Below are positions 11,901 to 55,965 of a stretch of DNA of 64,000 bases, piece after piece. The translations under genes were made by a program, and so were the position numbers. The notes beneath the pieces are model-generated. The model was not told the origin of the DNA and ran no database searches. It was given only the letters and a program-made list of their open reading frames with translations. This DNA is from Loktanella sp. 5RATIMAR09 (lineage in GTDB: Bacteria; Pseudomonadota; Alphaproteobacteria; Rhodobacterales; Rhodobacteraceae). The stretch lies in contig NZ_LJAL01000001.1 of NCBI RefSeq assembly GCF_001419985.1, positions 1-64,000 on the forward strand, written 5' to 3'. Positions within the stretch are counted from its first letter, which is position 1; each line of letters begins with the position of its first letter.

Positions 11901-11978
11901 GTCGTTCTCCTGTTCGCGGCCACGGTAGCGGCCAAGCAGCGCATGGACAATCCCGTCGCGCTGCGCATATTGCAGGGT

Positions 11979-23764: not shown

Positions 23765-23765
23765 T

Positions 23766-24956: not shown

Positions 24957-25038
24957 GGTCGCCCTACTAAGGCCAGATTAAGCGGGCATGGAGACACCCG
25001 ATGAAACAATTTTTGCAAACCACCGGAACGTATAGCGC

Positions 25039-26010
25039 ATGACAGACACGCCCGACATTGCCGTGGTGGTGATTGGCCGCAACGAAGGCGCACGCTTGGT
25101 AGCCAGCCTTGCATCATTGCAAGGAATCGTGCCGCGTATTGTTTATGTCGACAGCGGATCAACTGACAACAGCCTGCAGGCTGCACGTGATGCGGGCGCA
25201 CAGGTGGTCGAGTTGGACCTCAGCGTCCCCTTCACCGCTGCAAGGGCGCGCAACGCAGGGTTTGCGGCCCTTGATCCGGTGCCTGAATTTGTCCAGTTCA
25301 TCGACGGTGATTGCATGGTCGAACCGGGCTGGATTGCGCGCGGGCTTGCAGCACTTGCCGCACATGATGACATGGGTATCGTCACAGGCTGGCGATCCGA
25401 GATTTACCCCGATGCCAGCGTGTATAACGGACTGGCCGATTTCGAATGGCACAGGCCCGCCGGTGATATTGGCGTCTGCGGTGGTGACATGATGGTGCGT
25501 TCAAGTGTCTTTCTTCGAGTCGACGGTTTCAACCCCGTGATCATTGCCGGAGAGGATGAAGAGTTCTGCCTCCGCGTCGGTAAAGCAGGCTGGCGATTGC
25601 ATCGCCTGCCTGAAAAAATGACCAAACATGATGCAGATATGATGCGCTTTGGCCAGTGGTGGCAAAGGGCAGTACGCGCGGGGCACGCCTATACCCAAGT
25701 GAGCAGGTTGCATCCCGAATATGCACGGCGAACCCGCATCCGCATCTTGGTTTTCGGCGCAATCCTGCCAATGATTGCACTCTTCGGTTTGATCTTTGCA
25801 CCATGGCTGCTGATGCCGGTCTTCGCGCTCTATCTGCTGTCTTACCTGCGCACTGTGCGCGGTTTGCAAGCCGAAGGGTTGGCATCAGGCAAAGCGCGCC
25901 ATCAAGCTGTTTTCCTCAGTCTGTCCAAAGTGCCCAATGTCATCGGCATGCTGACATATTTCTGGCGCAGGTTTCGGAACAAAGACATGGTGCTGATTGA
26001 ATACAAATAG
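25039..26010 (+). CDS. GT2-family glycosyltransferase, membrane-attached
   Basis: A 323-residue GT-A transferase. VVVIGRNEGARL at the N terminus, the VDSGSTDNS nucleotide-binding segment, FIDGDCMVEPGW (DxD) and the ED motif in GEDEEFCLRVG are clear. Two hydrophobic segments at about 235-275 suggest membrane attachment. It lies 82 nt after the GT4 gene and is probably the last gene of the rhamnose operon. It converges on the SGNH-like gene with only 6 nt between stops. Confidence 0.88.
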   Translation: MTDTPDIAVVVIGRNEGARLVASLASLQGIVPRIVYVDSGSTDNSLQAARDAGAQVVELDLSVPFTAARARNAGFAALDPVPEFVQFIDGDCMVEPGWIARGLAALAAHDDMGIVTGWRSEIYPDASVYNGLADFEWHRPAGDIGVCGGDMMVRSSVFLRVDGFNPVIIAGEDEEFCLRVGKAGWRLHRLPEKMTKHDADMMRFGQWWQRAVRAGHAYTQVSRLHPEYARRTRIRILVFGAILPMIALFGLIFAPWLLMPVFALYLLSYLRTVRGLQAEGLASGKARHQAVFLSLSKVPNVIGMLTYFWRRFRNKDMVLIEYK

Positions 26011-26016
26011 CCCGGG

Positions 26017-26943
26017 TCAGCTTCGCACCCCTGTGCGGGGCATGGATGTTACGACATCCCAGACGACGTTTTGCATCAGACGCGCAGCCGCAGCGCCCGG
26101 ATCATCCGCAGGTGTGCCATCAGCCCGCACAAGCTGGTATGGCAGCCCGACAGGGCTTTGCTGATAAAGCACCGCATAATGCGTCAGCGCGATCAGATAG
26201 GCACCGTAGTCGTTGAAATGGATATTATCGCCGAACAGATCTTCATGGCTTGCCAAAGGCCCGACCGGCCCCTGATTTTCCAAAGCACGCGCGAGCGCCG
26301 CCATGACCTGACCACCGGGAATCAGATAAACCGGTTGTGGTGCCTCGGCCCGCGCAAGTGCGGGGCGTAGAATAGCATCTTCCCAGTATAGGCCAAGATC
26401 CTGATCAAGCCGGGTCAGCCAACCGGTCTCATCATTCAACGGGTGCCATGTCTCATAGAGATAAACCGGCAAACCACGGGCTTGGGCCTTTTCGGCCCAG
26501 CGATGAACATAGGTTGGGCTGTCAAAATACCTGATCGCATCCTTGATCTCGACCATTTCGGTCAACACAAGCGTGTTGTAGTCACCGGACTCGACCGCTT
26601 CATGGGCGTCACGGTATTTTGCATGCGCGTTTTCTTCGGCGAAACCGTTGATCGCAACATCCGGTTCCCAATGCGATTTCAGCGTCGCACCCCATCCCAA
26701 CTGGCTTGCATAGTCGTGCCCCTCACCTGCCAGTTGGGCAAGCATCGCAGGCATGTCCCGCCCCACAAGACTATGGCCGATATGAAAGACCTGCCGCGGG
26801 CCGTCGGGCCTTGGGGCCGGTTCTGCGTAGAGAGCCTCAAAAGCCTCTTTATCCAGCGGCGCAGGATCGCGCGCATAAAGGCCAAGCGCGGCCAAGACAG
26901 CGAGGGCGGGTGCAACAACCAGAAACGCGATACGTTTAACCAT
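26017..26943 (-). CDS. SGNH-like exported protein, paralogue 1
   Basis: A 308-residue protein with an N-terminal hydrophobic anchor or signal (about 4-22). A likely SGNH-type nucleophile block is IGHSLVGRDMP (GHS in place of GDS). A DxxH block is DNIHFNDYGAYL near residue 235-246. The middle carries NTLVLTEM and LYETWHPL. Close matches to all four blocks recur in the protein at 40549-41397. The family may hydrolyse or transfer acyl groups on polysaccharides; this is inference. The ATG at 26943 overlaps the phosphopantetheinyl transferase gene by 8 nt, so it is the last gene of the PKS operon. Confidence 0.65.
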   Translation of the reverse strand: MVKRIAFLVVAPALAVLAALGLYARDPAPLDKEAFEALYAEPAPRPDGPRQVFHIGHSLVGRDMPAMLAQLAGEGHDYASQLGWGATLKSHWEPDVAINGFAEENAHAKYRDAHEAVESGDYNTLVLTEMVEIKDAIRYFDSPTYVHRWAEKAQARGLPVYLYETWHPLNDETGWLTRLDQDLGLYWEDAILRPALARAEAPQPVYLIPGGQVMAALARALENQGPVGPLASHEDLFGDNIHFNDYGAYLIALTHYAVLYQQSPVGLPYQLVRADGTPADDPGAAAARLMQNVVWDVVTSMPRTGVRS

Positions 26944-27562
26944 CGGCAACAGATAGGATCAGACCGTCCGCGATCAAGATCGCTCCTTTCAGCTTTGCAA
27001 GGGTGGGATGACCAACGACATGAAAGGCACAGTCGGTCATATCAAGCGTCACCGCATGAAAGTCGATGACCTTGCCGGTCAGCGGATATTGGGCCTTATA
27101 GACGGCCTCTTTCGCGCTGAAAATCATCTTTGCTGCAAGGCCGGGATCGGGTTCATCCGCCAGCCATGCGCGCTCTGCCGGGGTGCAGACAATCGCGACC
27201 AGATCAGGGGCGAGCGGCGTTGCAGGCTCAACATCGACACCCAGCGCAGCGTAATTCTCTTGCAAAGCAACAATGGACACGCAGCAGCTATCGCAATGGG
27301 CAATGGACCCTGACATCTCAGATGGCCAGATGGGAGCGCGGTCACGGCCCTGCGGGATCGCTCGGGGGAGAAGCCCAATCTCCTCCATTGCAGCGCGGGC
27401 GGCACAGCGCCCCGCCGCAAATTCTGTGCGGCGTTTCGGAATGGCGCGGGCGACTGCGGCAGCCTCTTCATCCCAAAGCACGGCGTCTCGGGCCGGATCA
27501 GTCACACCGATCCCGGCATGGGGGCCAAGCATCTGCCGCAAAGCCGCCCTGACCCCTTCCAT
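26936..27562 (-). CDS. 4'-phosphopantetheinyl transferase (Sfp/EntD type)
   Basis: A 208-residue enzyme that loads the coenzyme A-derived pantetheine arm onto the serine of carrier-protein domains. The magnesium-binding motif LGVDVEPATP and the C-terminal FSAKEAVYKAQ are both present, which together define the family; the upstream AGRCAARAAM segment also fits. Its ATG overlaps the TGA of the NRPS-like gene by one nt. This coupling says it serves Ser1428 of that protein and Ser1810 of the PKS. Confidence 0.95.
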   Translation of the reverse strand: MEGVRAALRQMLGPHAGIGVTDPARDAVLWDEEAAAVARAIPKRRTEFAAGRCAARAAMEEIGLLPRAIPQGRDRAPIWPSEMSGSIAHCDSCCVSIVALQENYAALGVDVEPATPLAPDLVAIVCTPAERAWLADEPDPGLAAKMIFSAKEAVYKAQYPLTGKVIDFHAVTLDMTDCAFHVVGHPTLAKLKGAILIADGLILSVADG

Positions 27563-30500
27563 CAGCGATTGCGCCTGCGCGCGCGCATTTCGCGGCGACG
27601 GGCCATCGCATCTTGCAGCGGATCACCTGTAGCGTGTTCCACCGCAACAGGTACCGCAGTCGGTAGCGCTTCAGCGGCGGGTTGCGGCGGTGCGGGCTTC
27701 GCGCCTGCCTTTTGTGCGACGATCTTTGCCAAAGCGCCCAAGGTGGGTGCGCGGAAAATATCTGTAATCGACAGTTTTTGCACACCCATCGTTGCGCGAA
27801 TTTCGCGGTGGACCTGAACCGCCAGCAACGAATGCCCCCCAAGGTCAAAGAAACTGTCTTTCGCCCCGATTTGCTGCACGCCAAGCGTGGCAGACCAGAT
27901 CGCCGCGATCTTGTCGCTGATCTCGGCCTCCGATCCCAAATCAACCGGGGCCGCAGACGACGCGGGTGTCACGACCGACGCGGGTGCAGCGGGGGCCTGC
28001 CCAAGGGTGGGCGCAGGCAGCGCCTTGCGGTCAATCTTCTTGTTGGGCGTCAAGGGGAAGGCATCCAACGTCACAAAATGGCGGGGCACCATATAGTCCG
28101 GCAGGGATTGCAGCATCTCCTTGCGCAACGCGGCCTCGTCCACTTTGCCATCGGCCAACAGATACCCAACCAATTGCACAACGCCCGGCGTGTCCTCGCG
28201 CGCCACGACCACGGATTGCTGAACGGTATTATGCCGGTCGATCACGCTTTCGATTTCGCCCAGTTCCACGCGATACCCGCGTAGTTTGACCTGAAAATCG
28301 GCCCGCCCCAAAAAGTCGAGCCGCCCGTCCGGCCGCCAGCGGGCCAGATCACCGGTGCGATACATCCGCCCTTCAGCAAAGGGGTTGGGCAGGAACCGCT
28401 CGGCAGTCAGTTCGTCACGCTGGAAATAGCCCCGCGTGACACCTGCGCCGCCGATATAGAGTTCGCCCGGCACACCAATCGGCACCGGCTGCATGTCGTC
28501 ATCCAGCACATAAACCTGCGTATTCGCGATGGGCGTTCCGATGGGCACCGCACCCTGTCCCGCTTGCGCGGTCTGGGTAGTTGACCAGATTGTCGTTTCG
28601 GTTGGGCCGTACATGTTTTCAACATGCCCGCCTGTCACTTGGCGCAAATCATCCGCAAGAGCACCAGGCAGGGCTTCACCCCCGACCATCATGTGTTTGA
28701 TCCCCGAAAGGGCCACGCGCGCTTCATCATTCATCGTCAGCATTTGCGCCATGGACGGGGTGCATTGCAGATGCGTGACCTTATGGCGGGCAATCTGGGC
28801 CGCGATGGAATAATCGCCCTGTGCGACCTCCTGATTGCTGGCCGCCACGACCTTTGCCAGCGGCTTCAACCCCTCCAACACAAGATCAACGTCGATGCCG
28901 TAATCAATCAGACAAGCCACCTCGGTCACGCCAATGGCCTTGACCTCTTTGACGCGTTCAATCGCATCCTCAACGGTCCCAAACAGACCGCTGTCGTTGA
29001 AATAACGCTCAAAGGCGAATTCCAGAATGCCGTCCATCTCATCCTCGTCGAGCGAGCCGAGATCAATCTGCATCGGGTTATCGACGCCCTTGGGTTTCTT
29101 GAACGCAGGAAAGGCCCAGGCGTATTGCTTGATCAGGCCAGCAGCCGCACGCAGATAGTCCTTCATCGGTTCGCGGGCGATTTCGCGGGCATGGTCGCGG
29201 GTGTCCGACAGGAAACTGTGCAACATCAGGGTCACGGTGAAATCATCAGGGTTATGGCCTGCCGCGCGCAAGGCCTCGTGATAGATCACGATCTTTTCGG
29301 CCACTTCGCCCACGCTTTGCCCCAACAGATGGGTCAGCACGTTACAGCCGTTGGCGCCCGCCTCTTTCCATGTCTCGGGGTTGCCTGCGGTCGTAACCCA
29401 CACGTTCAGTTTCTTTGAAACAGGGCGCGGCTGCGTGACGACACCGTGCATTTCTCCGTTTGCACGCGGGAACTCTACCGTTTCCCCAACCCAGAGTTTG
29501 CGTAAATCGCGGATCGCATCGAACATCGCGGGTTTGTTCTGGGGTGGCGTGTTTTCGGGCCGCAGGACAAAATCATCGGGCTGCCAGCCAGAGGCAATGG
29601 CAAGCCCCGTGCGCCCGTTGGTCAGGTTGTCAATCACTGCCCATTCTTCGGCAATCCGCGCGGTGTGATGTAGAGGAGCGACACAAGACCCCGCTCGCAC
29701 CGCCAAGTTCTTGGTCACGGCAGCAACGGCGGCACCCGTCACAGACGGGTTCGGGTAAGGCCCACCAAAAGCATGGAAATGCCGCTCGGGCGTCCAGACA
29801 GCGCAGAACCCGTTCCTGTCGGCGAACTGCGCGCCTTCCAGCAAGGAGCGGTATTTGTCGCGCCCGATCCCGTCATCATTGCCCCAGTAGAACAGACTGA
29901 AATCCATGCCCACACCCGGCGCACTGCCTTCGCCAGCGACCAGCGCACGGTTTTCATCGCCGGAAATCACGAGCTTGAAACCGCGTGCGAGGGTCCAGAA
30001 TAGCTCCAGCACCGAAATATCGAACGACAACGATGTGACCGCCATCCAGACACCGGGCGGATCATGCGCGATGCGGTCATCCATGCCGGTAAAGAAATTG
30101 GCAACATTGCGATGTTCGACCATCACGCCTTTGGGTTTACCGGTCGAGCCGGAGGTATAGATCATATAGGCCAGATGCGCGCCGGTAACGCCGCTGTCGG
30201 GATTGCCCGTCTCGGTGCCTGCGGGCATTGCATCAACCAGCACCGTTTCAGCATCGGATTGCGGCAGATCGGCGGCAAGGGCGCTATCTGTCACGATCAC
30301 CTTCGTGCCGCTGTCTGCGATAAAATGGGCTGTCCTGTCGGCGGGATAGGCAGGGTCCATCGGCAGATAGGCACCGCCCGCTTTCATGATCGCCAAGGCC
30401 CCGATCAAAAGAGCAGACGAGCGCCGCAAATGCAGACCGACAATCGCGTCAGGGCCAACGCCTTTGGCGCGCAGCACATGGGCCAGCGCATTGGCGCGGG

Positions 30501-32112
30501 TGTTCAGCTCCGTATAGGTGAGGCTTTCGCCTTCAAATGCCAGCGCTTCGGCATCAGGGGTGCGGGCGACCTGCGCCTCGAATGCCTGATGGATGCACAG
30601 GTCGGCGGGGTAGTCCGTGGCAGTTGCATTCCAGTCATAAAGCACGGTCTGCCGCTCTGTTTCGGGCAGGATGGTAGGGGCCTCGCCTTTGGCGATCTGG
30701 GTTGCCATGTGCTCAAGGCGCGCGGCCATGAGTTGGGCTGTCTGCGCCGTTAACTTGCCCGTATCAGCGTAGAGCTTATTGTCAGCCACCGTCAGGGCGG
30801 TCCCTTTGATGTGGCCCTTTTTGGACAGGCCCAAGGCAGGCATCGCCACGCCACCGGGAATGCGGGCACAAAGATCAGCAGCAAAGGGGCCACGGGCGGC
30901 GGCGGCATCAAAATCATCCTCCGCGCGAACGGGCACCCAGTCATTCAGATAGCCGGGGTGATCATGGGACACGGCCAAAGCCAACGTGACCGGATCGTCA
31001 GACAACGCAGCACCCAACGCCCCAAGCGCGAGGGCCAAATCAGCGTCATCGCCCGTCAATGGCAAGCTGATGATCTCGCCTGCATCCGCGCTCATGTCGA
31101 TCAGTGGCAGGTTCGCGGGTGACATCACCTCAAGCGCTTTGCGCCATTTTCCCTCGTGTTTAAGTGTGGCTTTGAGGGCCGCCGTCAGCGCCGCGCCTTC
31201 TTCGGGTGACAGCTTTGGCAGCGCCTCGCCGACCCGCGCAATATCTGCCACAGACACGGCGCGCCCCACCGCATCGCGCAAACCCCGCAGGGTGACCGGC
31301 GCAGTAGCGGTGGCAACCGTCAAACTGTCATCACCCACTGCAATCAGCGTACCGGGGGCCGCATCAGACGCCGTTTTTTCAGCAGCCGCTTTCGCCACAA
31401 GAAACACACCCGCATCCGTAGCGATCTTGGGACAGGTCAGCGGGTTCCAATAATCGCCGTGGTCCAGCGCATGAACCAGAGTCGTAATCTTGCGGGCAGT
31501 CTGCGTGAAATCCAGACGGGCGGCGTTGGCCGGTCTGTCATTCTTGGCAAAATAGGTCCGCTGGGACAGATCCTGCGCGGTCACGACGGGGGCGTCGCTG
31601 GCCAGCTTGTCAATCACAGTCTCGAAACTGTCGATGGCAGCGGCATAGCATTTCGCGTTCAGCGTCAGGACGTTTTCATCAGGGGCCACATCGAAGAAGC
31701 TCTGCGCGAGCAGCCTACCCTCATCCACGCCACCTTCGATCAAATGCCAACTGATCCCGTACTCGGCCTCACCCGCCAGCAAGGCCCAAACGGGCGCGTT
31801 CAGTCCCGCATAGCGCGGCAAAGGGCCGTCATGGAAATTCGCCGCTCCGCGCAGGGGTAGCGCCAGCACAGCGTCGGGGATCATATCAAGGTTGGCGATG
31901 GACAAGAGCCAGTCGAAAGAGACGGCCGACAGTGCAGTCAGCAGATCATCATCCGATGACACCACCGGTAGGCCCGCATCCCTGGCCCATCGCGCCACAT
32001 CCGTGTTGCGTGTCACAACCGCCGCAAGGGTGTGGCCCGCATCGCGCAACATCTCGCCACATTGAATGGCAAGGGATTCGTTCCCGATGATTACCGCACG
32101 AAACGTGGACAT
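27562..32112 (-). CDS. NRPS-like protein: formyltransferase-A(LLM)-PCP
   Basis: A 1516-residue protein. Residues 1-300 resemble methionyl-tRNA formyltransferase, with the triad Asn92, His94 and Asp130 and a C-terminal FMT-like part. Residues about 310-490 look like the tail of a condensation domain without HHxxxDG. The adenylation domain runs 500-720 and 1095-1370: YTSGSTGKPKG (652-662), SFDISVLE (A4), MYGPTETT (A5), YRTGDLARW (A7), LRGYRVELGEIE (A8) and NKKIDRKAL (A10). A luciferase-like monooxygenase (about 735-1090) is inserted between A4 and A5, an arrangement known for natural-product LLM domains. The carrier serine is Ser1428. The pocket residues suggest glycine. The start follows GGAGAAG, one nt after the GT2 stop. 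Confidence 0.92.
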   Translation of the reverse strand: MSTFRAVIIGNESLAIQCGEMLRDAGHTLAAVVTRNTDVARWARDAGLPVVSSDDDLLTALSAVSFDWLLSIANLDMIPDAVLALPLRGAANFHDGPLPRYAGLNAPVWALLAGEAEYGISWHLIEGGVDEGRLLAQSFFDVAPDENVLTLNAKCYAAAIDSFETVIDKLASDAPVVTAQDLSQRTYFAKNDRPANAARLDFTQTARKITTLVHALDHGDYWNPLTCPKIATDAGVFLVAKAAAEKTASDAAPGTLIAVGDDSLTVATATAPVTLRGLRDAVGRAVSVADIARVGEALPKLSPEEGAALTAALKATLKHEGKWRKALEVMSPANLPLIDMSADAGEIISLPLTGDDADLALALGALGAALSDDPVTLALAVSHDHPGYLNDWVPVRAEDDFDAAAARGPFAADLCARIPGGVAMPALGLSKKGHIKGTALTVADNKLYADTGKLTAQTAQLMAARLEHMATQIAKGEAPTILPETERQTVLYDWNATATDYPADLCIHQAFEAQVARTPDAEALAFEGESLTYTELNTRANALAHVLRAKGVGPDAIVGLHLRRSSALLIGALAIMKAGGAYLPMDPAYPADRTAHFIADSGTKVIVTDSALAADLPQSDAETVLVDAMPAGTETGNPDSGVTGAHLAYMIYTSGSTGKPKGVMVEHRNVANFFTGMDDRIAHDPPGVWMAVTSLSFDISVLELFWTLARGFKLVISGDENRALVAGEGSAPGVGMDFSLFYWGNDDGIGRDKYRSLLEGAQFADRNGFCAVWTPERHFHAFGGPYPNPSVTGAAVAAVTKNLAVRAGSCVAPLHHTARIAEEWAVIDNLTNGRTGLAIASGWQPDDFVLRPENTPPQNKPAMFDAIRDLRKLWVGETVEFPRANGEMHGVVTQPRPVSKKLNVWVTTAGNPETWKEAGANGCNVLTHLLGQSVGEVAEKIVIYHEALRAAGHNPDDFTVTLMLHSFLSDTRDHAREIAREPMKDYLRAAAGLIKQYAWAFPAFKKPKGVDNPMQIDLGSLDEDEMDGILEFAFERYFNDSGLFGTVEDAIERVKEVKAIGVTEVACLIDYGIDVDLVLEGLKPLAKVVAASNQEVAQGDYSIAAQIARHKVTHLQCTPSMAQMLTMNDEARVALSGIKHMMVGGEALPGALADDLRQVTGGHVENMYGPTETTIWSTTQTAQAGQGAVPIGTPIANTQVYVLDDDMQPVPIGVPGELYIGGAGVTRGYFQRDELTAERFLPNPFAEGRMYRTGDLARWRPDGRLDFLGRADFQVKLRGYRVELGEIESVIDRHNTVQQSVVVAREDTPGVVQLVGYLLADGKVDEAALRKEMLQSLPDYMVPRHFVTLDAFPLTPNKKIDRKALPAPTLGQAPAAPASVVTPASSAAPVDLGSEAEISDKIAAIWSATLGVQQIGAKDSFFDLGGHSLLAVQVHREIRATMGVQKLSITDIFRAPTLGALAKIVAQKAGAKPAPPQPAAEALPTAVPVAVEHATGDPLQDAMARRREMRARRRNR

Positions 32113-32113
32113 A

Positions 32114-33106
32114 TCACTCTTCTCCGGTTTGCGGACGCCCCTGATCAGGCCGTGCGCGCATAGGTTTGAAAACTGCAGCAAAGTCATGTGCAGCCATCGT
32201 CCGCAGGAAATGCGGGGCCGCACCAGAGCGCTTGCCGGTTAGTTTGCAGCGCAACCAATGCAGGCTGCCGCCAATCAAGTGCAGGACCGTTGCACAGATC
32301 GCATAGGCGCGCCCATGGTTCTTGGCAAAATAATACCAGCGCGAGTCGAACCAGTAGTCCGGCACGCGCCGCCATTCCTTCATACCCGTTGAAACCGATC
32401 CCAGATGCGTGACCACGCTATCGGCAAGAAACATCCCTTGATGCCCCGCCTGTTGCACACGACGGCACAGATCGGTTTCTTCGAAATACAAAAAGAAAGT
32501 CTCGTCAAACAATCCGATTTCATCCAGCACGTCCTGCCGGATCATCATGCTGGCACCGGCGAGCCAATCGACAGGGGCAGTATCGCTCAGCTCTCTTGGC
32601 ACCCGATAGGATTTCAGCAGCTTGCTGACGGGGCCGAAGTGGATGGACCCTTCCAATTCGCTCCAGATTGAGGGGAAACGGAAAGTCGTGGTGTGCTGAT
32701 CACCATCTTCGCCGGCGATAAAGCTACCGGCGAAACCGCTACCGGGGGTGGTATTCAGATGCTCGTAAAGCACACGGATCGCATCCGGTTTTGGAAAGGC
32801 GTCCGAGTTCAGGATATAGACGTAATCCGGCCTGCTGCCGTCAGATAGGCCCGCGCGGATACCCACATTGTTGCCCGCTCCAAAACCGCCATTGCGACCT
32901 GACTGGATCACGCGGATGTTGTCCCAGCCAGCGGATGCGACATGCGCCGCCATCGTTTCAAAAGACCCGTCCTGACTGTCGTTGTCGACAATCACAATCT
33001 CGCCTGGCAAACCCTGCATCGCAACCCGTGCCGCCTGTGCCGCATCCAGCGTCATCTGTGCAGTCTTGTAGTTCAGCACGATTGTCAGGATGCGCGGGTC
33101 AGCCAT
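32114..33106 (-). CDS. GT2 glycosyltransferase of the PKS operon
   Basis: A 330-residue GT-A enzyme of the rhamnosyltransferase-like branch. ILTIVLNYKTAQMT, IVIVDNDSQDGS, YVYILNSDAFP (DxD region), WLAGASMMIRQDVLDEIG and FLYFEETDLCRR are present. Its ATG directly abuts the PKS stop and its stop is one nt from the NRPS-like start, so it is built into the operon. It may glycosylate the PKS/NRPS product, and dTDP-rhamnose made by the neighbouring operon is a reasonable donor. That is inference from context. Confidence 0.88.
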   Translation of the reverse strand: MADPRILTIVLNYKTAQMTLDAAQAARVAMQGLPGEIVIVDNDSQDGSFETMAAHVASAGWDNIRVIQSGRNGGFGAGNNVGIRAGLSDGSRPDYVYILNSDAFPKPDAIRVLYEHLNTTPGSGFAGSFIAGEDGDQHTTTFRFPSIWSELEGSIHFGPVSKLLKSYRVPRELSDTAPVDWLAGASMMIRQDVLDEIGLFDETFFLYFEETDLCRRVQQAGHQGMFLADSVVTHLGSVSTGMKEWRRVPDYWFDSRWYYFAKNHGRAYAICATVLHLIGGSLHWLRCKLTGKRSGAAPHFLRTMAAHDFAAVFKPMRARPDQGRPQTGEE

Positions 33107-36100
33107 TTACTCAGCAGCTTCCTTGTAATTTGCCGCAACGCTTGGCGGTCGTTCGAGATAGCGGCGGATGCGGGCGGCCAGCACACGCACGTTGGGTTCG
33201 AGCACCATGCTGTCGTGATCACCGGGAACCTCGAAAACATCCAACCCCGGCACAAACTGGGTCCAATCGTTATCGGGATAAAGATAGGTGCGCTCTGAAC
33301 TGATCAATCGGCCCCCTACGGTCCATTTCGGCACCAAAGGCGGACGGAACAGTGCCATGGTCCCATCCCAAGGTTTCACCTGATAGGCGCCCACGCTTTC
33401 GAGAAACGCATCCTGAATCGCCAGATTGTGAAACTGCTGGCCTTCCTCGGCGGCGTCTTCGCGGCCCTTTCGTTTTGCAATCTCCCATGCAACCCGCGAC
33501 TTGAACCAGTCCACCAGATACATCGGCCCACCGCGCTGGATATCCTGCAACTTTGTCCGCAAACGGTCGCCCCGATCCATGATCGGGCGGACCGGCAATG
33601 GCGTATCCAGCAACACAAGTGCGGCCACCTCTTCACCCTGCGCGCGTAGCTGGTGGGCGATTTCATAGGCTGTAATGCCGCCCCCCGAAAAACCGCCCAA
33701 GTAATAGGGGCCATGCGGCTGTACCTGCCGCATCTCAGCGATGTAATCCGTGGCGGCGGCCTCAATCGTGCGGTGCGGTTCTTCATCCCCCAAAAGGCCA
33801 CGCGCCTGCAAGCCATAGAAGGGACGATCGTTGCCGATCAGATGCGCCAGATGACGCAGGTTCAGCACATTGCCGAACATCCCCGCCACAAGGAAAAAGG
33901 GTGGTTTGCGTCCGCCTTCGCCCTGATGCATCGGCACCAGATGGGTGAAACGGCGGGCGGGCGCTTTGGGGGCGTCGGCGGGGGCATCCTCGCCCTCAAC
34001 AGTGACACCGCGTGCGGCAATCAGGGCCGCGCATTTGCGGATCGTCGGGGCCTCAAACAAAACCGAGATGGGGAAATCGACGGCGAATGCTTTGCGGATT
34101 TGCGCAAAAAGGCGCACCGCGATCAGGGAATGTCCGCCAAGATCAAAAAAACTGTCCTCGGCACCGATTTGATCGACCCCCAACAGGTCCTGCCAGAACC
34201 CTGCCAGCCGCTCTTCGATCGCGCCTTCGGGCGCGACATAGTCACTATCCAGCTGCGGACGCGAGAATTTCTGTCCGTCTTCGGCATCATCGTCATCACT
34301 CTGGCCCGCCTGCGCAATCAGCGCATCCAGATCAAGCGATGATAGGATCACTTGCTGATGCGGGCTCATTAACGCGCGCAGAAACAGGTCCGCCCCCTCT
34401 TCGGCACGGATGCCTTGCGACAGGTTGTGGCGCAGCCGTTCTTCGGCGGGCGACAAGGGGCGTGCGACATCATCCTGCCCCGCCGTTACGGGGGCTGGCT
34501 CTTGCGCGCCAAAGCCTGTCATCTCGGCCATCTGGCGGATCGTAAAGCCGGTGATATCAACACAAACCGTCCCGTCTGGTGCGGCAATCGTGATGTCAAA
34601 GCTCGCGATTTCACTGTCTGATGTGTTGTCGCGCGCGTTGCGCACCCAGCTGACCACCTGCGCGGGCAGCGGGGCATAGACCTTGACCGACCGGTAGGAC
34701 ACCGGCACCCAAAGGTGTTGTGCCGCATAGCCCGCGATCAGTTTCATGGCCCAACCTGTTGCCAAATCCATCATGCCCGGATGCAGCAGATAACCCGCAT
34801 CGGTATCTCCCGCCGCAACCTGCGGCAGCGCCAGCGTGGCAAGCCCCTCGCCATCCCCAAGGGCCGTAGACTGCAGCACCCGCCAGCGCGGGCCAAATTT
34901 CAAATGCGCCTCTTGCGGCGAGGCAATCCAACCCAGATCGCCCGCCTCGATTGGTGCCGCACAGCGCGCGGCAATGGCGGCAATATCCAGCGGCGCAGGC
35001 GCACCCATGGGTAAGATCTGCAAACTAGCCTGCGCGTTCTGGATAAAGGCACCATCCGCGCCGCTTTCCACCAGAAATTCATAACCCGTCTCGCTGCGCG
35101 GCAGGGTCAGACGCAGGTCCACCGCACCGCTGTCACCCACCGCGAAGGGGCGCAGAAAATAGAGATCACGGATTTCGAAGGCTGCCGTCTCACCCATGCC
35201 TTGCAGCGCTTCGGCCGCCATTTCCAGATATCCGGTACCGGGCACCAGCGCGTCACCCGCCTTGGTGCGGTGTTCGTCCAGAAACCAGCGGTCGGCCACC
35301 GTGTAGGACGCCGTGAAGACGCGCGCGCCTGCCCGATCAAATGTCGCATGGTCCAACATCGGCATGCCAACTTCCGTCACCTCTACGGGGGCGGCCGCAC
35401 CTGTGCGTTCTTCCATCGCATCCGCAGCCATACCCACATCGGCCCAGATGCCCCAGTTGATCGCACGTACCATCGTCGCATCACTGCTGCGCGATTTGGC
35501 ATAGGCGTTCAGGTATTCGTTAGCGGCCACATAATCGACCTGACCGATGGGCGCTGTCGCGGTCGAGCTGGAGGCGAACAGCACAAGCCAATCCAGATCG
35601 CCGTCAGGAAAGACCTCATCCAGCACTTGGGTGCCGTGGATTTTGGGGGCAAAGACATCTTCGATGCTGGTCACATCCTTGGCCATGATCGGCGCGTCAT
35701 CGATGTGTCCAGCGGCGTGGATCACCCCGTTGATCGGTCCGAACGCCGCCTCAACCTGTGCACGCGCATCGCGGATATCTTCCACGTTGCTGACATCTGC
35801 CGCCACTGAAATGATCTCACCGCCCAGCGCCTCAAGCGCTTGCACCGCCCTGATGCGCCGCGCAAGCGATGCATTGGGCGGAGTGTTCTTCAGGGTCGTA
35901 TCCCATGCATCACGCGGCGGCAAAGCACTGCGCGACAACAGCGCAATCCGCGCACCGCAGCGTTTGATCAACGCCTCCGCCAGCGTAAGACCAATGCCGC
36001 CAAAACCGCCGGTGATCAGATAGACACCTTTGTCTTTTAACACAGGCAGCGGACCATCATCGGGCAAATCAGTCAGCGCCGCAGATTTGTAGGTGAGTGC

Positions 36101-39100
36101 GAACCGTTTGCCCCCGCGCACCAACGCCGTGCCATTGCCCGGATCGGCCAATGCATCCTCAAGGATATGCCCCACCAAACGGTCGATATCGGCCTTGGCC
36201 AGCCTCCGTTTCTTGCGCCCCTCAAGCTGCGGCAGTTCAAGATCAAGCGTCGCGACTGTCAGATGCGGAAATTCACGCGGGATGACACGTGCAGGTCCTG
36301 CAAGCGTGGCTTTCTCGGGGTGCTGCAGAGCCTCACGTTTATGCTGCGCGGCCCCGTTGGAGAGCACAGTCATATGGATATCGCCCGGTAAATCCTCGCC
36401 GCCAATCGCTTGGGCAAGGAAGAACAGACTGTAGAACCCCTGCTCTTGCACACGGTGGAAAAAGCTTGAACCGGGGCGGAAACTCTCATCCGCGGTAATC
36501 ATCCAGCCATGTAAAATACGGGTGGGGATTAGATCGCGGGTGTTGAGATCGGCGATGAGCAGATCATAGCCTTCGCGCCCCCGTTCAGGGGCAAGGAAGT
36601 AGCTACCCTCCCCATCGCGCGCAAAGGTGTCTCCGGGACGCACCGTGATCACGTCATGCCCGGCGTCGCGCAGTCTGTCACCGGCGGCGGCAGTCAGCCC
36701 TGCATCATCGACAAAGACCAACCATGTCTGCTTGTCCGCCTCGGACAGATCACCGGTGACGTCCACATCACAGGCCGCATAACGCGGCAACCACGCAGGC
36801 CGATAACCCCACGCATCAGGTGTATCACTGCGGGTCAGCCATTCGCTGGCCTCTTCTGTCGCGGCCTTGCCCGGTTCGATGAAATAGGCGGCATGCTGGA
36901 ATGCATAGGTCGGCAGCGGGACCCGCAAACGCCGCGCATCGCCCCAGATCTGGCCCCAATCGAACGTGCCGCCAACGGCCCAGACACGGCCCAGCATCGC
37001 CATGAAATACGCATCATCCGCGATATCGTCCTTCGGGTGGCGCAGGCTTGAAATCACCTGGTTTGCGGTCACCTTTCCATGCTGGCCTGCCAGCGACGAC
37101 ATTGCCTTACCCGGACCCACTTCGATAAAGACGCGCGCGTCTTTATCGGCCAGCGTGGTCAGGCAATCGGCAAAGCGCACCGTGCCGCGCAGGTGTGCGA
37201 CCCAATATTCGGGGTCTTGGGCCTGCGCATCGGTGATCAGTTCTCCCGTGCGGTTGGACGTAAAGGGGATCTTCGGGGCATGCAGGTCAATCGACCGCAG
37301 GTAATCGCCAAAATCCTTCAGGATCGGATCAAGCATCCGCGAATGGGCCGCGATGTCGATCGGGATCCGCTGGCAATCAATATCTTTGGCCTTCAGGCGC
37401 GCTTCAAGATCATCCAGCGCAGATTGCGGACCAGTAGCGACGCTGAGTGACGGGGCGTTGACCGCACCCAAATCCAGATCATCGCCCAAAAACGGCTCCA
37501 ACTGATCCGCAGACAGGGCAACCGACAACATGCCGCCCGCAGGGACGGTATCAAAGAGCTTGCCGCGCAAATGAACCAAACCAATGCAGTCCTCAAAGGA
37601 TATCACACCCGCCACACAAGCGGCGGTGTTTTCACCCATCGAGTGGCCGGTCAGGGCCGCAGGCTGCACACCCCAGCTCATCCAAAGCTGCGCCAGCGCG
37701 TATTCCACGATCATGATGAGCGGCAATTGCACCGACGGTTGGGTCAGCTTGGCATCAGCGGCCGCTTCCTGCCCCTTTTCGGGCAGCCAAAGCGCGCGGA
37801 TATCGTAATCCAGCTTGGGTTGCAGAATGGCGAGACCCTGATCCATCCATTCCGCAAAGACAGGCTCGGTCTCGTAAAGGTCCCGCGCCATGCCAGCATA
37901 TTGCGCGCCACCGCCGGGGAACATGAAGACATAATCAGGGGCTTCACCCACGACCGTGTGACTGAACGCGCGGCGGGGGTCGTTTGTTTCAAGCTGTGCT
38001 GCGGCGTCTTCATGGGTTTCGGCCACGACAACGCGGCGGCGCTCGAAAGCGCGACGCCCCTTTTGCAATGTCCACGCCACGTCAGCAAGCGGCTGGTCAG
38101 GGTTTGCGCGCAGGTGCGCGGCCAGTGCCGCACAGTTGGCATCAAGTGCCGCCTTGTTGCGTCCCGAGACTGTCAGGATTTGAAACGGCCAATCCGATGC
38201 CTCCGAAGGCGGCAATTCAGGTGCTTCCTGCAACACGACATGGGCGTTGGTGCCGCCCACACCCAGCGAATTCACACCAGCGCGGCGCGGTCCTTTGTGG
38301 CTGACCCAATCGGTGAGCGTATCATTGACACGGAAGGGCGACGTTTCGAAATCAATCGCCGGATTTGGTTTCTCGTAACCCAACGAGGCAGGGATCTGTT
38401 TGTGATGCAGTGCAAGCGAGGTCTTGATCAGGCTGGCCACGCCTGCCGCTGTATCCAGATGCCCGATGTTGGTTTTCACCGAACCGATCCGGCAGAACCC
38501 CACCGCGTCCGTGGTTTCCTGAAACGCTTGTGTAAGGGCGGCAACCTCAATCGGGTCGCCCAGATAGGTGCCGGTGCCGTGGCATTCGATATAGTCGATG
38601 GTGTCGGCAGGTGTTTCGGCGATCATCTGCGCTTCGGCAATCGCCTCGGCCTGCCCGTCGACGGACGGGGCAAGATAACCGGCCTTGGCCGCGCCATCGT
38701 TATTGATGGCCGAACCCTTGATGACGGCCCAGATATGATCACCATCGGCAATCGCATCTTTCAGGCGGCGCAGCACCACAACACCGGCACCTGACCCAAA
38801 AACCGTGCCTTGGGCGCGGTGATCAAAGGCGTGGCAATGGCCGTCAGGCGACAGCACCTCGCCCTCTTTGTAAATATACCCGCGGTCCTGTGGCAGTTCG
38901 ATTGTGACACCGCCCGCCAGCGCCATGTCACATTCGCCCGACAGCAGCGCCTGCGTGGCGTAATGGGTGGCGACCAACGATGTGGAACAGGCGGTCTGCA
39001 CGTTCACACTCGGGCCTTTGAGATCAAAAATATGGCTCAGCCGTGTGGACAGGAAATCCTTGTCGTTGCCGGTATGGCGCAACAGGAACATGCCCACGTT

Positions 39101-39556
39101 GTCGACCAGTTTCGGGTTCGAGCAGATGTTGAAATAGAAATAGCTGCCCATACCGCAGCCTGCAAAAACGCCAATCGGGCCTTTGGCGTTTTCCGGCATA
39201 TGGCCTGCGTTTTCCATCGCCTCCCACGCCACCTCAAGGAAACGGCGATGCTGCGGATCCATGATGGCGGCCTCTTTGGCGGAGAGGCCGAAAAATTCGG
39301 TATCAAAGTTCTGATAGCCCGAAAGCGGGGCCGCCGCAGGCACGTAATCGGGCCGGTTCAGACGATGCGCGGCCTCACCCGCTGTCAGCAAGTCTTCCTT
39401 GCTGTAATGGCGGATCGATTCAATCCCGTTCCTGAGATTTTCCCAATAGGCCGCAACTGTATCTGCCCCGGGCAAATGCGTAGCCATACCGACAATGGCG
39501 ATGTCGGTTTCAGCAAAATTGATATCGTCTCGTGATAGGGGCAACACAACTACCAA
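33107..39556 (-). CDS. Type I PKS: KS-AT-KR-DH-ACP-TE
   Basis: A 2149-residue single-module synthase. The KS (about 15-445) has Cys190, His326 and His366. The AT (about 543-840) has Ser639 in GHSMGE, but IAAH replaces the HAFH or YASH specificity block, so malonyl use is likely but unsure. The KR (about 1175-1375) has GGFGGIG, Tyr1342 and a B-type HIDD. The DH (about 1410-1680) has His1429 and Asp1597. The ACP serine is Ser1810. The TE (about 1880-2135) has Ser1957, Asp1984 and His2114. KR precedes DH, the reverse of the usual order. The start is uncertain: TTG at 39556 with GAGG just upstream, or GTG at 39547. First gene of a five-gene operon. Confidence 0.95.
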   Translation of the reverse strand: MVVVLPLSRDDINFAETDIAIVGMATHLPGADTVAAYWENLRNGIESIRHYSKEDLLTAGEAAHRLNRPDYVPAAAPLSGYQNFDTEFFGLSAKEAAIMDPQHRRFLEVAWEAMENAGHMPENAKGPIGVFAGCGMGSYFYFNICSNPKLVDNVGMFLLRHTGNDKDFLSTRLSHIFDLKGPSVNVQTACSTSLVATHYATQALLSGECDMALAGGVTIELPQDRGYIYKEGEVLSPDGHCHAFDHRAQGTVFGSGAGVVVLRRLKDAIADGDHIWAVIKGSAINNDGAAKAGYLAPSVDGQAEAIAEAQMIAETPADTIDYIECHGTGTYLGDPIEVAALTQAFQETTDAVGFCRIGSVKTNIGHLDTAAGVASLIKTSLALHHKQIPASLGYEKPNPAIDFETSPFRVNDTLTDWVSHKGPRRAGVNSLGVGGTNAHVVLQEAPELPPSEASDWPFQILTVSGRNKAALDANCAALAAHLRANPDQPLADVAWTLQKGRRAFERRRVVVAETHEDAAAQLETNDPRRAFSHTVVGEAPDYVFMFPGGGAQYAGMARDLYETEPVFAEWMDQGLAILQPKLDYDIRALWLPEKGQEAAADAKLTQPSVQLPLIMIVEYALAQLWMSWGVQPAALTGHSMGENTAACVAGVISFEDCIGLVHLRGKLFDTVPAGGMLSVALSADQLEPFLGDDLDLGAVNAPSLSVATGPQSALDDLEARLKAKDIDCQRIPIDIAAHSRMLDPILKDFGDYLRSIDLHAPKIPFTSNRTGELITDAQAQDPEYWVAHLRGTVRFADCLTTLADKDARVFIEVGPGKAMSSLAGQHGKVTANQVISSLRHPKDDIADDAYFMAMLGRVWAVGGTFDWGQIWGDARRLRVPLPTYAFQHAAYFIEPGKAATEEASEWLTRSDTPDAWGYRPAWLPRYAACDVDVTGDLSEADKQTWLVFVDDAGLTAAAGDRLRDAGHDVITVRPGDTFARDGEGSYFLAPERGREGYDLLIADLNTRDLIPTRILHGWMITADESFRPGSSFFHRVQEQGFYSLFFLAQAIGGEDLPGDIHMTVLSNGAAQHKREALQHPEKATLAGPARVIPREFPHLTVATLDLELPQLEGRKKRRLAKADIDRLVGHILEDALADPGNGTALVRGGKRFALTYKSAALTDLPDDGPLPVLKDKGVYLITGGFGGIGLTLAEALIKRCGARIALLSRSALPPRDAWDTTLKNTPPNASLARRIRAVQALEALGGEIISVAADVSNVEDIRDARAQVEAAFGPINGVIHAAGHIDDAPIMAKDVTSIEDVFAPKIHGTQVLDEVFPDGDLDWLVLFASSSTATAPIGQVDYVAANEYLNAYAKSRSSDATMVRAINWGIWADVGMAADAMEERTGAAAPVEVTEVGMPMLDHATFDRAGARVFTASYTVADRWFLDEHRTKAGDALVPGTGYLEMAAEALQGMGETAAFEIRDLYFLRPFAVGDSGAVDLRLTLPRSETGYEFLVESGADGAFIQNAQASLQILPMGAPAPLDIAAIAARCAAPIEAGDLGWIASPQEAHLKFGPRWRVLQSTALGDGEGLATLALPQVAAGDTDAGYLLHPGMMDLATGWAMKLIAGYAAQHLWVPVSYRSVKVYAPLPAQVVSWVRNARDNTSDSEIASFDITIAAPDGTVCVDITGFTIRQMAEMTGFGAQEPAPVTAGQDDVARPLSPAEERLRHNLSQGIRAEEGADLFLRALMSPHQQVILSSLDLDALIAQAGQSDDDDAEDGQKFSRPQLDSDYVAPEGAIEERLAGFWQDLLGVDQIGAEDSFFDLGGHSLIAVRLFAQIRKAFAVDFPISVLFEAPTIRKCAALIAARGVTVEGEDAPADAPKAPARRFTHLVPMHQGEGGRKPPFFLVAGMFGNVLNLRHLAHLIGNDRPFYGLQARGLLGDEEPHRTIEAAATDYIAEMRQVQPHGPYYLGGFSGGGITAYEIAHQLRAQGEEVAALVLLDTPLPVRPIMDRGDRLRTKLQDIQRGGPMYLVDWFKSRVAWEIAKRKGREDAAEEGQQFHNLAIQDAFLESVGAYQVKPWDGTMALFRPPLVPKWTVGGRLISSERTYLYPDNDWTQFVPGLDVFEVPGDHDSMVLEPNVRVLAARIRRYLERPPSVAANYKEAAE

Positions 39557-39669: not shown

Positions 39670-40518
39670 TCAGTTGCGGCCACGACGCCAAACCTCTTTG
39701 CCATCCCCGAGACTGCGTCTCGCGCGGATCGTGCTGACCACATAGACCAGCACAAAGACGGCTGACGAAAACGGCGTGCGGAATAGCAGAGGTATGTTGC
39801 CACCCGATGCGTTGACCTCGCTGTCGTTGGCCAACAACGCGGGGTATTTTTCGGCCAGTTCGAGGTTGCCCTCGCGCCACCGATGGCGGACGTTGACCAA
39901 ATTGGCAAATCCTTCGGGAAGCGGCCAATCATGCATCGCGCGGGTCTTGCACCTTTCCTGCGGGGCAAATTGAAGCCGCACAAAACGGTCATCGGCAATA
40001 ATCGCAGGAAAGGCATCCCACCGCGCACGACCTTTGGCGTTGACGGCATATAGTCCGATGCCCGGCACACCGTCCCGCACGAAAGGCATCTGCGTCCAGA
40101 CTTTGGCATAGGCCCGTGTGATCAGGCTTTGCGGGCGCTGGATGCGGACGGTTCCACTGGCGTAGACGGGTGCGTCCCTGGACAAAATCTCTGCCATTTC
40201 GGCAAGCATTGTCCGCCCGATCATCACGTCGGCGTCAAGGAAAATCCGGTTATCATAAGAGGCCACAACCTCGGCCTCGTTCAGGGCATTCATCTTGTTG
40301 CCCCGCACAATATCCAGCACGACAAGATCAAAACCGACAGCCTTCAATGCAGGTTCTTTTTGCTGCGCAAGCGCAACGGTCCGGTCACTGCATCCGTTTG
40401 CTGCGACAATCACCTGAACACCATGGTGGGGCGGCAGATCACGCTGCGCAATCACCGCGTCCAGACATGCCTGAATGCGGTTTTCTTCATTGTGACTGGG
40501 GATAATGACAGTAAGCAA
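39670..40518 (-). CDS. GT2-family glycosyltransferase
   Basis: A 282-residue GT-A transferase beginning MLTVIIPSHNEENRI, with VIVAANGCSDRTV and FLDADVMIGRTM (DxD). A hydrophobic stretch (SSAVFVLVYVVSTI) lies near the C terminus. The start is a TTG at 40518, preceded by AGGGTG at good spacing. It lies 30 nt after the second SGNH-like gene and before the PKS promoter region, so it belongs to the upstream polymerase-side group of genes. Confidence 0.88.
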   Translation of the reverse strand: MLTVIIPSHNEENRIQACLDAVIAQRDLPPHHGVQVIVAANGCSDRTVALAQQKEPALKAVGFDLVVLDIVRGNKMNALNEAEVVASYDNRIFLDADVMIGRTMLAEMAEILSRDAPVYASGTVRIQRPQSLITRAYAKVWTQMPFVRDGVPGIGLYAVNAKGRARWDAFPAIIADDRFVRLQFAPQERCKTRAMHDWPLPEGFANLVNVRHRWREGNLELAEKYPALLANDSEVNASGGNIPLLFRTPFSSAVFVLVYVVSTIRARRSLGDGKEVWRRGRN

Positions 40519-40548: not shown

Positions 40549-41397
40549 TTATCCGTACAGAACGTTCCACACGAGATCCTGCAGATACCGCGCCTGTTGC
40601 GGCGTCACACCATCGAGATTTTGCAAACCACGCGGGTCACGGCCATAAATCACTGCGAAATGCGCCAACGCAATATAGTAGTTCCCCAATCCGTTCAGGT
40701 GGATGGTATCCGAGAACAGATCAGAAATACCCGTCATCCCCGGCGCGTTGCCTGCTGCGATATCGTCATAGATCGCCGCCATTAACAACGGCCCCGGGAT
40801 CATCCGCATCTCTGGCGCGCCATCGGGGCGGTTCGTATTGACGTGGGCGCGTATCTCTTCCCAGCGTGCCATTTCCAAATCCAGTCTTTGACGGAAGGGA
40901 ATGTTACCCTCCGGGTCCCTGTGCGGATTTTCGAAATCTGGGCCGCTCTCGATATCAACCCAAGTGGCGTAAAGGATGGTTTCCGCACCATTCCCGCCAT
41001 TGCCGTTGGTCCATGCATTTTCGAACCAAAGCAACGCTTGTGCGAGCGAGTTATGAAACGGCATCGTATTCGACAAGGACGCGCGCTCGGTCAGGACAAG
41101 GGTATCATAGCGCGCAATATCATGGCGTGCATCGGGCTGGTCACAACATGGTACATTGGTCCAGCGGAAATCCAACGGACTGCCGGGGATGGTTGATTTG
41201 TCGATGACAACGGCGGAATCGCCTGTCTGTCTGACCATCGCGCGCAGTGGATCCAGAACCCCGTCGGTCAGACTATGGCCGGACTGAATGACCCGTTGTG
41301 TCAGCGGCCTCTCCTGCGCGTGGGCCATCGCACCCCACGCAAACAGCAGCGCGACCAGCATACTTGATAATAGAAAAGGCGGGATCCTGAGAGACAT
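40549..41397 (-). CDS. SGNH-like secreted protein, paralogue 2
   Basis: A 282-residue protein with a clear signal peptide (MSLRIPPFLLSSMLVALLFA then AMAHA, cleavage near residue 28). The nucleophile-type block is QSGHSLTDGVL and the DxxH block is DTIHLNGLGNYY. It shares TLVLTE, MIPG and the ALAHFAVIYGRDP-type tail with the protein at 26017-26943. It should act in the periplasm. The ATG was chosen to start the signal peptide; the frame continues upstream without export features. Its activity is unknown: esterase or acyltransferase are the main options. Confidence 0.65.
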   Translation of the reverse strand: MSLRIPPFLLSSMLVALLFAWGAMAHAQERPLTQRVIQSGHSLTDGVLDPLRAMVRQTGDSAVVIDKSTIPGSPLDFRWTNVPCCDQPDARHDIARYDTLVLTERASLSNTMPFHNSLAQALLWFENAWTNGNGGNGAETILYATWVDIESGPDFENPHRDPEGNIPFRQRLDLEMARWEEIRAHVNTNRPDGAPEMRMIPGPLLMAAIYDDIAAGNAPGMTGISDLFSDTIHLNGLGNYYIALAHFAVIYGRDPRGLQNLDGVTPQQARYLQDLVWNVLYG

Positions 41398-41549
41398 AAC
41401 ACTTCCTAACCAAAAAACGACAAAGGTTGGCGCAGAGCAGTACAACCACGGCAGAGCTGACAGCCAGCTTTACGCCACACAAACCATAGGCCACATCCCT
41501 ACCGCAGTCGAAGCGTAATTCACAGCACATCAGAACACGCCTGCGACGC

Positions 41550-45786: not shown

Positions 45787-45823
45787 AAGTGTCGTCACGT
45801 TCTGACGGTTAATGGTGGATCAA

Positions 45824-47423: not shown

Positions 47424-47440
47424 ATCGTCTCGCCCTACCC

Positions 47441-55855: not shown

Positions 55856-55965
55856 CTCGCTTTCTGTTCTGACATCGTCCGAAAGGGGCGCGTTTATCGT
55901 TACGCGGTATGGCTTTGCCTGCAAAGGATATATTGCTGGCCCTCTGCATGCGACAGCAACAAAGG

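What the first reader, a model, noticed from the sequence alone, without database searches (positions are those of the whole stretch)
26017..39556. Compact PKS/NRPS operon embedded in an exosortase-linked exopolysaccharide locus
Seen: five minus-strand genes (PKS, GT2, NRPS-like, Sfp-type transferase, SGNH-like protein) with gaps or overlaps of 0-8 nt, flanked on both sides by polysaccharide genes. The operon has its own carrier-protein activator and its own glycosyltransferase. Inference: it makes a small acyl group or metabolite that is glycosylated or attached to the polysaccharide, and not a free antibiotic. No resistance or efflux gene of the usual kind is present in the operon.
Basis: partly seen in the sequence, partly recalled or inferred. 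Interest (0 to 1): 0.85.

Follow-up and report, generated by a model that had tools for sequence, protein, structure and literature searches.

The report
PKS-NRPS module of exopolysaccharide loci
A small antibiotic-style assembly line in a marine bacterium sits, here and in its relatives across dozens of genera, inside the genes for a slimy surface sugar polymer, which suggests that it makes a chemical group for that polymer and not a free antibiotic.

Summary
The five-gene minus-strand operon is real: PKS (KS-AT-KR-DH-ACP-TE), GT2, NRPS (formyltransferase, adenylation domain split by a luciferase-like monooxygenase, carrier), Sfp-type transferase, SGNH-like protein. Upstream on the same strand lies a Wzy-like polymerase. 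It is the orphan NRPS/PKS/GT/PPTase cluster already reported in many roseobacters, so the cluster itself is not new. What I add is its context. In 120 Rhodobacteraceae genomes, each of another genus, 46 carry the NRPS marker; 45 of 46 also carry a WecG/TagA-type exopolysaccharide transferase, on the same contig in 40 and within 20 kb in 38. Of 66 relatives with both flanks, 59 have a core EPS homologue beside the operon, against 0 of 20 control stretches. The link persists on plasmids, at other chromosomal sites, in changed gene orders and in Hyphomicrobiales. Exosortase XrtD is a neighbour mainly in one clade. The named catalytic residues are kept in all 73-74 orthologues aligned. Best reading: a glycine-derived, formylated, oxygenated short acyl unit made for the exopolysaccharide. 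Covalent attachment is inferred; the product is unknown.

The parts
33107..39556 (-). type I PKS, one module, KS-AT-KR-DH-ACP-TE
   Evidence: named catalytic residues kept in 73 of 73 orthologues
32114..33106 (-). GT2 glycosyltransferase of the operon
   Evidence: match in 80 of 80 loci
27562..32112 (-). NRPS: formyltransferase - (no Pfam condensation domain) - A domain with inserted luciferase-like monooxygenase (TIGR04020) - PCP; longest ORF from 32223
   Evidence: named residues kept in 74 of 74 orthologues
26936..27562 (-). Sfp-type phosphopantetheinyl transferase, one of two ACPS-family matches in the genome
26017..26943 (-). SGNH-hydrolase-like protein with N-terminal hydrophobic helix (probably periplasmic); longest ORF from 26949
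39670..40518 (-). GT2 glycosyltransferase upstream on the same strand
40549..41445 (-). second SGNH/DUF4886-like protein
   Evidence: weak Pfam hit; aligns with the first one, 32% identity
41550..43106 (-). Wzy/O-antigen-ligase-like polymerase (below the Pfam cut-off)
43110..43685 (-). small ORF at the head of the minus-strand run, no family
43901..45505 (+). exosortase XrtD
   Evidence: TIGR04152 640.9 bits, cut-off 400
45812..46474 (+). VPLPA-CTERM protein
   Evidence: TIGR03370 27.4 bits, cut-off 25.35
46551..48991 (-). tyrosine-autokinase-like and chain-length-determinant-like proteins (below the curated cut-offs)
13230..14027 (+). WecG/TagA/CpsF-family glycosyltransferase
   Evidence: TIGR00696 92.6 bits, cut-off 69
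15362..16741 (+). Wzx-type flippase (best models below their cut-offs)
20426..23764 (+). rmlC, rmlB, rmlD, rmlA (dTDP-rhamnose)
23721..26010 (+). GT4 (EpsE-like, below cut-off) and GT2 glycosyltransferases
50287..50964 (+). probable priming sugar transferase, homologue (52%) of L042:19451-20113, which matches PF02397
13188..55908 (.). 42.7-kb island holding all of the above, between genes that adjoin in most other genera sampled

Best explanation
The operon is a dedicated accessory module of a Wzx/Wzy-type exopolysaccharide pathway. Sfp activates the two carrier domains (inferred). The NRPS loads an amino acid, most likely glycine (from the A-domain pocket), formylates its nitrogen (formyltransferase) and oxygenates it at C-alpha or N (luciferase-like domain). 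The PKS adds, in the simplest case, one malonyl unit, reduces and dehydrates it, and its thioesterase releases or transfers the short acid, for example an oxygenated 4-formamido-butenoyl unit. The acyl unit is put on a sugar of the lipid-linked repeat before Wzx flips it and Wzy polymerises it, with the operon's GT2 acting on the decorated or the acceptor sugar; the periplasmic SGNH protein adds, moves or trims ester groups on the polymer. Shown by computation: domain content, conserved catalytic residues, conserved linkage. Inferred: glycine, number of extensions, attachment, order of steps.
For: Linkage: 45 of 46 NRPS-bearing genera also have a wecG-type gene, same contig in 40, within 20 kb in 38; Fisher p 2e-19, not corrected for phylogeny. 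59 of 66 fully flanked loci have a core EPS homologue and 64 of 66 any EPS homologue; the other two have GT4, GT2, polysaccharide deacetylase or ManC-type genes; controls 0 of 20 and 2 of 20. Linkage survives different gene orders, plasmids and another order, Aminobacter and Shinella, and different chromosomal sites. Dependence looks one-way: 14 of 59 wecG genera lack the NRPS, 1 of 46 NRPS genera lacks wecG. By carrier domains (2 of 4 matches in the genome) it is the only such assembly line there, and it has one of the two PPTase matches. The named catalytic residues are all kept. SGNH fold nearest DUF4886; carbohydrate esterases and PatB are among the further matches.
Against: No product, mutant or polysaccharide structure is known to me. 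No acyltransferase that would carry the acyl unit to a sugar is recognised in the five genes; the PKS thioesterase could simply hydrolyse the product. The operon's GT2 is not the best match of any gene in the Hyphomicrobiales loci. SGNH was found in 52 of 80 loci only (some loci are cut short). A related starter NRPS is used outside EPS loci. Export genes of other kinds lie near in Hyphomicrobiales: a TolC-family gene next to the PKS in Aminobacter, a HlyD-type gene in Shinella. In the Rhizobiaceae genome G401 the 20 kb fetched around the NRPS matched no EPS gene of the window; its wecG lies 28 kb away. The SGNH fold also matches thioesterases and lipases. The glycine call rests on a recalled code.
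Confidence: 0.52

Rival explanations
1. The operon makes a free, possibly glycosylated, small metabolite (signal, metal ligand or inhibitor) that is co-expressed with exopolysaccharide because both serve surface life; the polymer is not modified.
For: Thioesterase-terminated PKS and a GT2 fit a released glycoside; the starter module with the same pocket also occurs in a non-EPS cluster; TolC- and HlyD-type genes near the operon in Aminobacter and Shinella; the literature lists it among secondary metabolite clusters (PMC4337385, passages).
Against: No transporter in the five genes and none recognised among the recurrent neighbour families of Rhodobacteraceae that I annotated, apart from Wzx (10 representatives each, several without a hit); linkage to flippase, polymerase and chain-length genes across two orders.
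Confidence: 0.27
2. The PKS/NRPS makes a lipid-like or acyl-amide primer or anchor on which the chain is started or held at the cell surface, a role suggested by RkpA/WcbR-type PKSs of capsule loci (role recalled).
For: Precedent of a type I PKS inside capsule clusters (PMC3908369, passages); an iterative PKS could build a longer chain; KR-DH order recalls iterative systems (recalled).
Against: No enoyl reductase domain, so no saturated chain; formyl-amino-acid starter is polar; a priming sugar transferase homologue (PF02397 type) lies in the window at 50287-50964, in 6 of 80 relative loci and in 5 of 8 further loci searched, so chains can be started the usual way.
Confidence: 0.12
3. The linkage is inherited neighbourhood or island hitch-hiking without functional coupling.
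For: The window's locus is a 42.7-kb island and relatives are on plasmids.
Against: Gene order around the operon varies and the site differs between genera (12 NRPS-bearing genomes, G022 included, have the two genes that flank the window's island within 2 kb), yet polysaccharide genes were found in all 66 fully flanked loci.
Confidence: 0.06

Closest known systems
Conserved roseobacter NRPS/PKS/glycosyltransferase/PPTase cluster (Martens et al., cited in Collins et al. 2015, PMC4337385)
   Same: Same four genes; orthologues are in Leisingera sp. ANG-M1 and ANG-Vp (L037, L041), strains of that paper, for which it lists one PKS/NRPS cluster each
   Different: Nothing in kind; the passages I read do not mention the exopolysaccharide setting, the formyltransferase or the monooxygenase domain, and call the product uncharacterised
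RkpA/WcbR-type polyketide synthases of capsular polysaccharide clusters (PMC3908369, passages)
   Same: Type I PKS placed among polysaccharide synthesis and export genes
   Different: Here an NRPS starter module, PPTase, GT2, thioesterase and KR-before-DH order; EPS of Wzx/Wzy type
Formyltransferase-adenylation-PCP starter modules (linear gramicidin LgrA; conglobatin CongA and oxazolomycin, glycine; PMC4504003, passages)
   Same: FT + A + PCP feeding a PKS; LgrA is the best PDB sequence match
   Different: A domain carries an inserted luciferase-like monooxygenase; no cyclodehydratase seen in the operon
MupA/Atu3671-type luciferase-like monooxygenases (MupA alpha-hydroxylates an ACP-bound beta-ketoacyl chain, PMC10952193, passages)
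   Same: TIGR04020, 469 bits against a cut-off of 244; the insert matches the solved PuwE (6ket)
   Different: Built into an A domain of a loading module; substrate would be an aminoacyl- or formylaminoacyl-PCP
XrtD / VPLPA-CTERM exosortase system
   Same: xrtD and a VPLPA-CTERM protein in the same island
   Different: Association with the operon is mostly limited to one clade

Membership tests
Roseobacter conserved NRPS/PKS cluster | NRPS, PKS, glycosyltransferase and PPTase genes together | tested here: met
   orthologues in two strains of PMC4337385
RkpA/WcbR-type capsule PKS | type I PKS among polysaccharide genes | tested here: met
RkpA/WcbR-type capsule PKS | stand-alone fatty-acid-synthase-like module without NRPS (domain content of RkpA recalled; no RkpA sequence was compared) | tested here: not met
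   NRPS partner and TE, no ER; not filed as a member
FT-A-PCP starter modules | formyltransferase with N-H-D catalytic residues, A and PCP | tested here: met
   N129, H131, D167 in 80 of 80 aligned NRPSs (role of the triad recalled); domains
FT-A-PCP starter modules | glycine-activating pocket | tested here: inconclusive
   code DILSMGMIWK in 55 of 80 and variants at position 5, once also 8, in 25; closeness to a glycine code DILQLGLIWK and the choice of positions are recalled
TIGR04020 luciferase-like monooxygenase | score above the curated cut-off | tested here: met
   469.1 bits, cut-off 244.45
TIGR04020 luciferase-like monooxygenase | alpha-hydroxylation activity | not testable with these tools
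   needs an assay
XrtD/VPLPA-CTERM system as the operon's partner | linkage conserved wherever the operon occurs | tested here: not met
   xrtD in 3 of 46 operon-bearing genera, on the operon's contig in 1; clade-level linkage
DUF4886/SGNH hydrolases (fifth gene) | Pfam gathering score | tested here: not met
   13.7 bits, cut-off 26.7
DUF4886/SGNH hydrolases (fifth gene) | SGNH fold with Ser and Asp-x-x-His | tested here: met

The most novel reading that the evidence does not exclude
A hybrid NRPS/PKS assembly line dedicated to decorating a bacterial exopolysaccharide: a polymer repeat unit that carries a nonribosomally made, formylated and oxygenated amino-acid/polyketide acyl group, in more than a third of the Rhodobacteraceae genera sampled (46 of 120).
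Probability: 0.42. Interest if true: 0.85.

Novelty: new variant of a known kind. Interest (0 to 1): 0.64.

Why it matters
The same orphan cluster has been listed as a secondary metabolite cluster of roseobacters, common colonisers of algae and surfaces. If it serves the exopolysaccharide, the product is to be sought in the purified polymer and not in culture extracts, which makes an open question directly testable, and would add assembly-line chemistry to the known ways of decorating surface polysaccharides.

Tried and rejected
Exosortase as the general partner: rejected as a family-wide rule (3 of 46, negative association, p 0.004), kept as a clade feature. My first impression from 10-kb flanks that xrtD is hardly ever linked (2 of 80 loci) was too strong; wider positions corrected it.

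G022, the one NRPS genome without wecG, holds on its 6.8-kb contig an NRPS-then-PKS order without GT2, so it is probably another cluster; it was kept in the count of 46. G118, G086, G028, G098 and G069 have the two genes on separate contigs of draft assemblies; whether they are linked there is unknown.

Papers on this cluster's mutants: locus tags of the P. inhibens genes searched gave only the genome paper. Searches for print linking this cluster to exopolysaccharide (open-licence PMC texts only) showed none in listings or in the passages read; subscription papers, among them Martens 2007, were not seen. One search found nothing; two searches gave general papers, of which I read passages of three. 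Searches (Pseudovibrio; Tad pili) had nothing on this cluster in the passages shown.

A check for a remnant condensation domain failed because the motif I gave was not in the protein; it was not repeated. Fold of the 838-aa neighbour (alignment A2) could not be run: machine busy. The Foldseek search was also busy; the VIA second look was used. AT substrate was not settled: the motif reads IAAHS, neither of the two recalled classes. One control stretch (L130) had weak NRPS-like matches of 28-32%, not followed.

Promoter scan: a site at 39632-39605 upstream of the PKS, but fewer sites than in shuffles, so no weight given.
Full report
What is there. The window comes from a rhodobacteral genome; the nearest NRPS relative found is that of Loktanella sp. 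PT4BL (94% identity in the best segment). Pfam gives KS-AT-KR-DH-ACP-TE for the PKS, formyltransferase - A (split by a luciferase-like monooxygenase) - PCP for the NRPS, GT2, and a PPTase. The monooxygenase insert is TIGR04020 (residues 775-1125, 469 bits, cut-off 244) between A-domain stretches 548-758 and 1125-1339. A condensation domain was not found by Pfam at 0.001.

Setting. Left of the operon lie wecG-type and other glycosyltransferases, wzx, PIG-L, a 2OG oxygenase and rmlCBDA; right of it a GT2, a second SGNH-like protein, a Wzy-like polymerase, xrtD, a VPLPA-CTERM protein, tyrosine-kinase-like and chain-length-like proteins (wzx, wzy, kinase and chain-length genes score below the curated cut-offs). 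The GT2, the second SGNH-like gene, the polymerase and a small ORF are on the operon's strand directly upstream, with gaps of 113, 30, 104 and 3 nt. All this is an island: the genes on its two sides (11754-13187 and 56814-57731) lie within 2 kb of each other in 36 of the 43 genomes that have both on one contig, and 43.6 kb apart here (61 genomes searched, 59 with both genes, 16 of these on different contigs). In G055 the sequence shows the left gene and the homologue of 55909-56349 side by side.

Is the linkage conserved? Three tests. (1) 120 Rhodobacteraceae genomes, each from another genus: the NRPS marker TIGR04020 in 46, wecG family in 59, both in 45; on one contig in 40, all within 30 kb, 38 within 20 kb. 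Phylogeny was not corrected for. (2) 80 loci fetched by NRPS sequence (the best 80 of 289 relatives): PKS, GT2 and NRPS matches in 80 of 80, Sfp 75, SGNH 52; of 66 loci with enough sequence on both sides 59 hold wzx, wzy, wecG, tyrosine kinase or chain-length homologues and 64 hold some EPS homologue; the remaining two (L009, L010) hold GT4, GT2, polysaccharide deacetylase or ManC-type genes. The same queries in 20 stretches of 20 kb at round-number positions of six related genomes found 0 with a core gene and 2 with a distant rmlB-like hit. The 14 loci cut short were left out of the 66; 10 of these 14 show a core homologue, one more some EPS homologue, three none. (3) Annotated plasmids (28 records matched, 7 regions read): Ruegeria (two), Paracoccus and Parasedimentitalea, and the Hyphomicrobiales Aminobacter and Shinella, six in all, have the NRPS and PKS among EPS genes, five of them with a PPTase or its pieces (in Parasedimentitalea none was annotated or matched in the stretch). 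In Aminobacter a TolC-family gene adjoins the PKS, and in Shinella a HlyD-type gene is near. The seventh region, an Aliiroseovarius plasmid at 45% identity, has another PKS/NRPS partner and no EPS locus, though a VPLPA-CTERM gene is near. In 149 Rhizobiaceae genomes 5 have TIGR04020; three of them (G401, G474, G446) have an open frame of about 1540-1730 aa and a wecG gene 13-30 kb away on the same contig; only for G401 were the domains checked, and there the 20 kb fetched matched none of the window's EPS genes, with a beta-helix protein, a LuxR-type regulator and an epimerase as neighbours.

Exosortase. xrtD occurs in 24 of the 120 genomes, but in only 3 of the 46 with the NRPS, and on the operon's contig only in the window's own genome. 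In 21 genomes that I chose (20 high in NRPS identity, plus L079 because its flank had shown xrtD) xrtD occurs in 15; in 13 it is on the operon's contig by equal contig length, about 9-33 kb from the NRPS in 12 of them and 63 kb in L016 (my arithmetic); L026 was not checked this way and L004 has it on another contig. On the NRPS tree all xrtD-linked loci but L016 fall in the clade of the window, with five members that lack xrtD and L004; L079 is not in the tree. The other loci of the tree were not searched for xrtD beyond their flanks. So xrtD is a clade-level companion; the general partner is the exopolysaccharide locus.

What is known. The four-gene cluster was reported in 28 of 57 roseobacter genomes with uncharacterised product (PMC4337385, passages); PKS and NRPS genes of Phaeobacter inhibens (PMC4062626, passages) and a PKS/NRPS hybrid of Rhodoalgimonas, Lentibacter and Aquicoccus (PMC10608839, passages) are probably the same, not checked gene by gene. 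Type I PKSs inside capsule clusters (RkpA/WcbR) are known (PMC3908369, passages). I saw no paper that ties this cluster to exopolysaccharide, which is limited to open-licence texts.

Verdict. Polysaccharide linkage is conserved and strong; exosortase linkage is clade-level; attachment to the polymer is the best-supported but undemonstrated function.

Noticed in passing
window 13188-55908: The whole EPS/xrtD/PKS-NRPS region is a 42.7-kb island between genes that lie within 2 kb of each other in 36 of 43 genomes with both on one contig; 12 NRPS-bearing genomes (G022 included) have this site closed and the operon elsewhere.
   Followed up: yes
L080:18330-20846 and 30 other loci: An about 838-aa protein (cluster of 31), in many loci next to SGNH: N-terminal half with SGNH-like GHSL and DDIHPN motifs, C-terminal half with a conserved EYSNEVWN stretch; no Pfam hit. 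It may be an esterase joined to a glycoside hydrolase.
   Followed up: partly
window 40549-41445: Second SGNH/DUF4886-like protein between the Wzy-like gene and the GT2 upstream of the PKS.
   Followed up: partly
L118:10636-24375: Aliiroseovarius plasmid with the same FT-A-monooxygenase-PCP starter type and identical pocket code, but with a large NRPS/PKS partner and no EPS genes: the starter module is used in more than one pathway.
   Followed up: partly
L113:22134-22920: In Ruegeria sp. SCSIO 43209 the Sfp homology comes in two pieces near a transposase.
   Followed up: no
L115:16508-21099: In Paracoccus marcusii the formyltransferase is annotated as a separate gene before the NRPS, and the PPTase lies about 9 kb away within the same EPS locus.
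   Followed up: no
L113:25783-29697: UbiA-type prenyltransferase, GtrA, FAD oxidoreductase and SDR genes near the operon in Ruegeria, a set that recalls decaprenyl-phosphoryl-arabinose synthesis (recalled).
   Followed up: no
L114:6069-7412: TolC-family gene adjoining the PKS in Aminobacter sp. MSH1; could be part of the polymer's or of a small molecule's export.
   Followed up: no
L088 (G330, 1.5-Mb genome of another family): TIGR04020 domain among several PKS-like stretches in a small genome.
   Followed up: no
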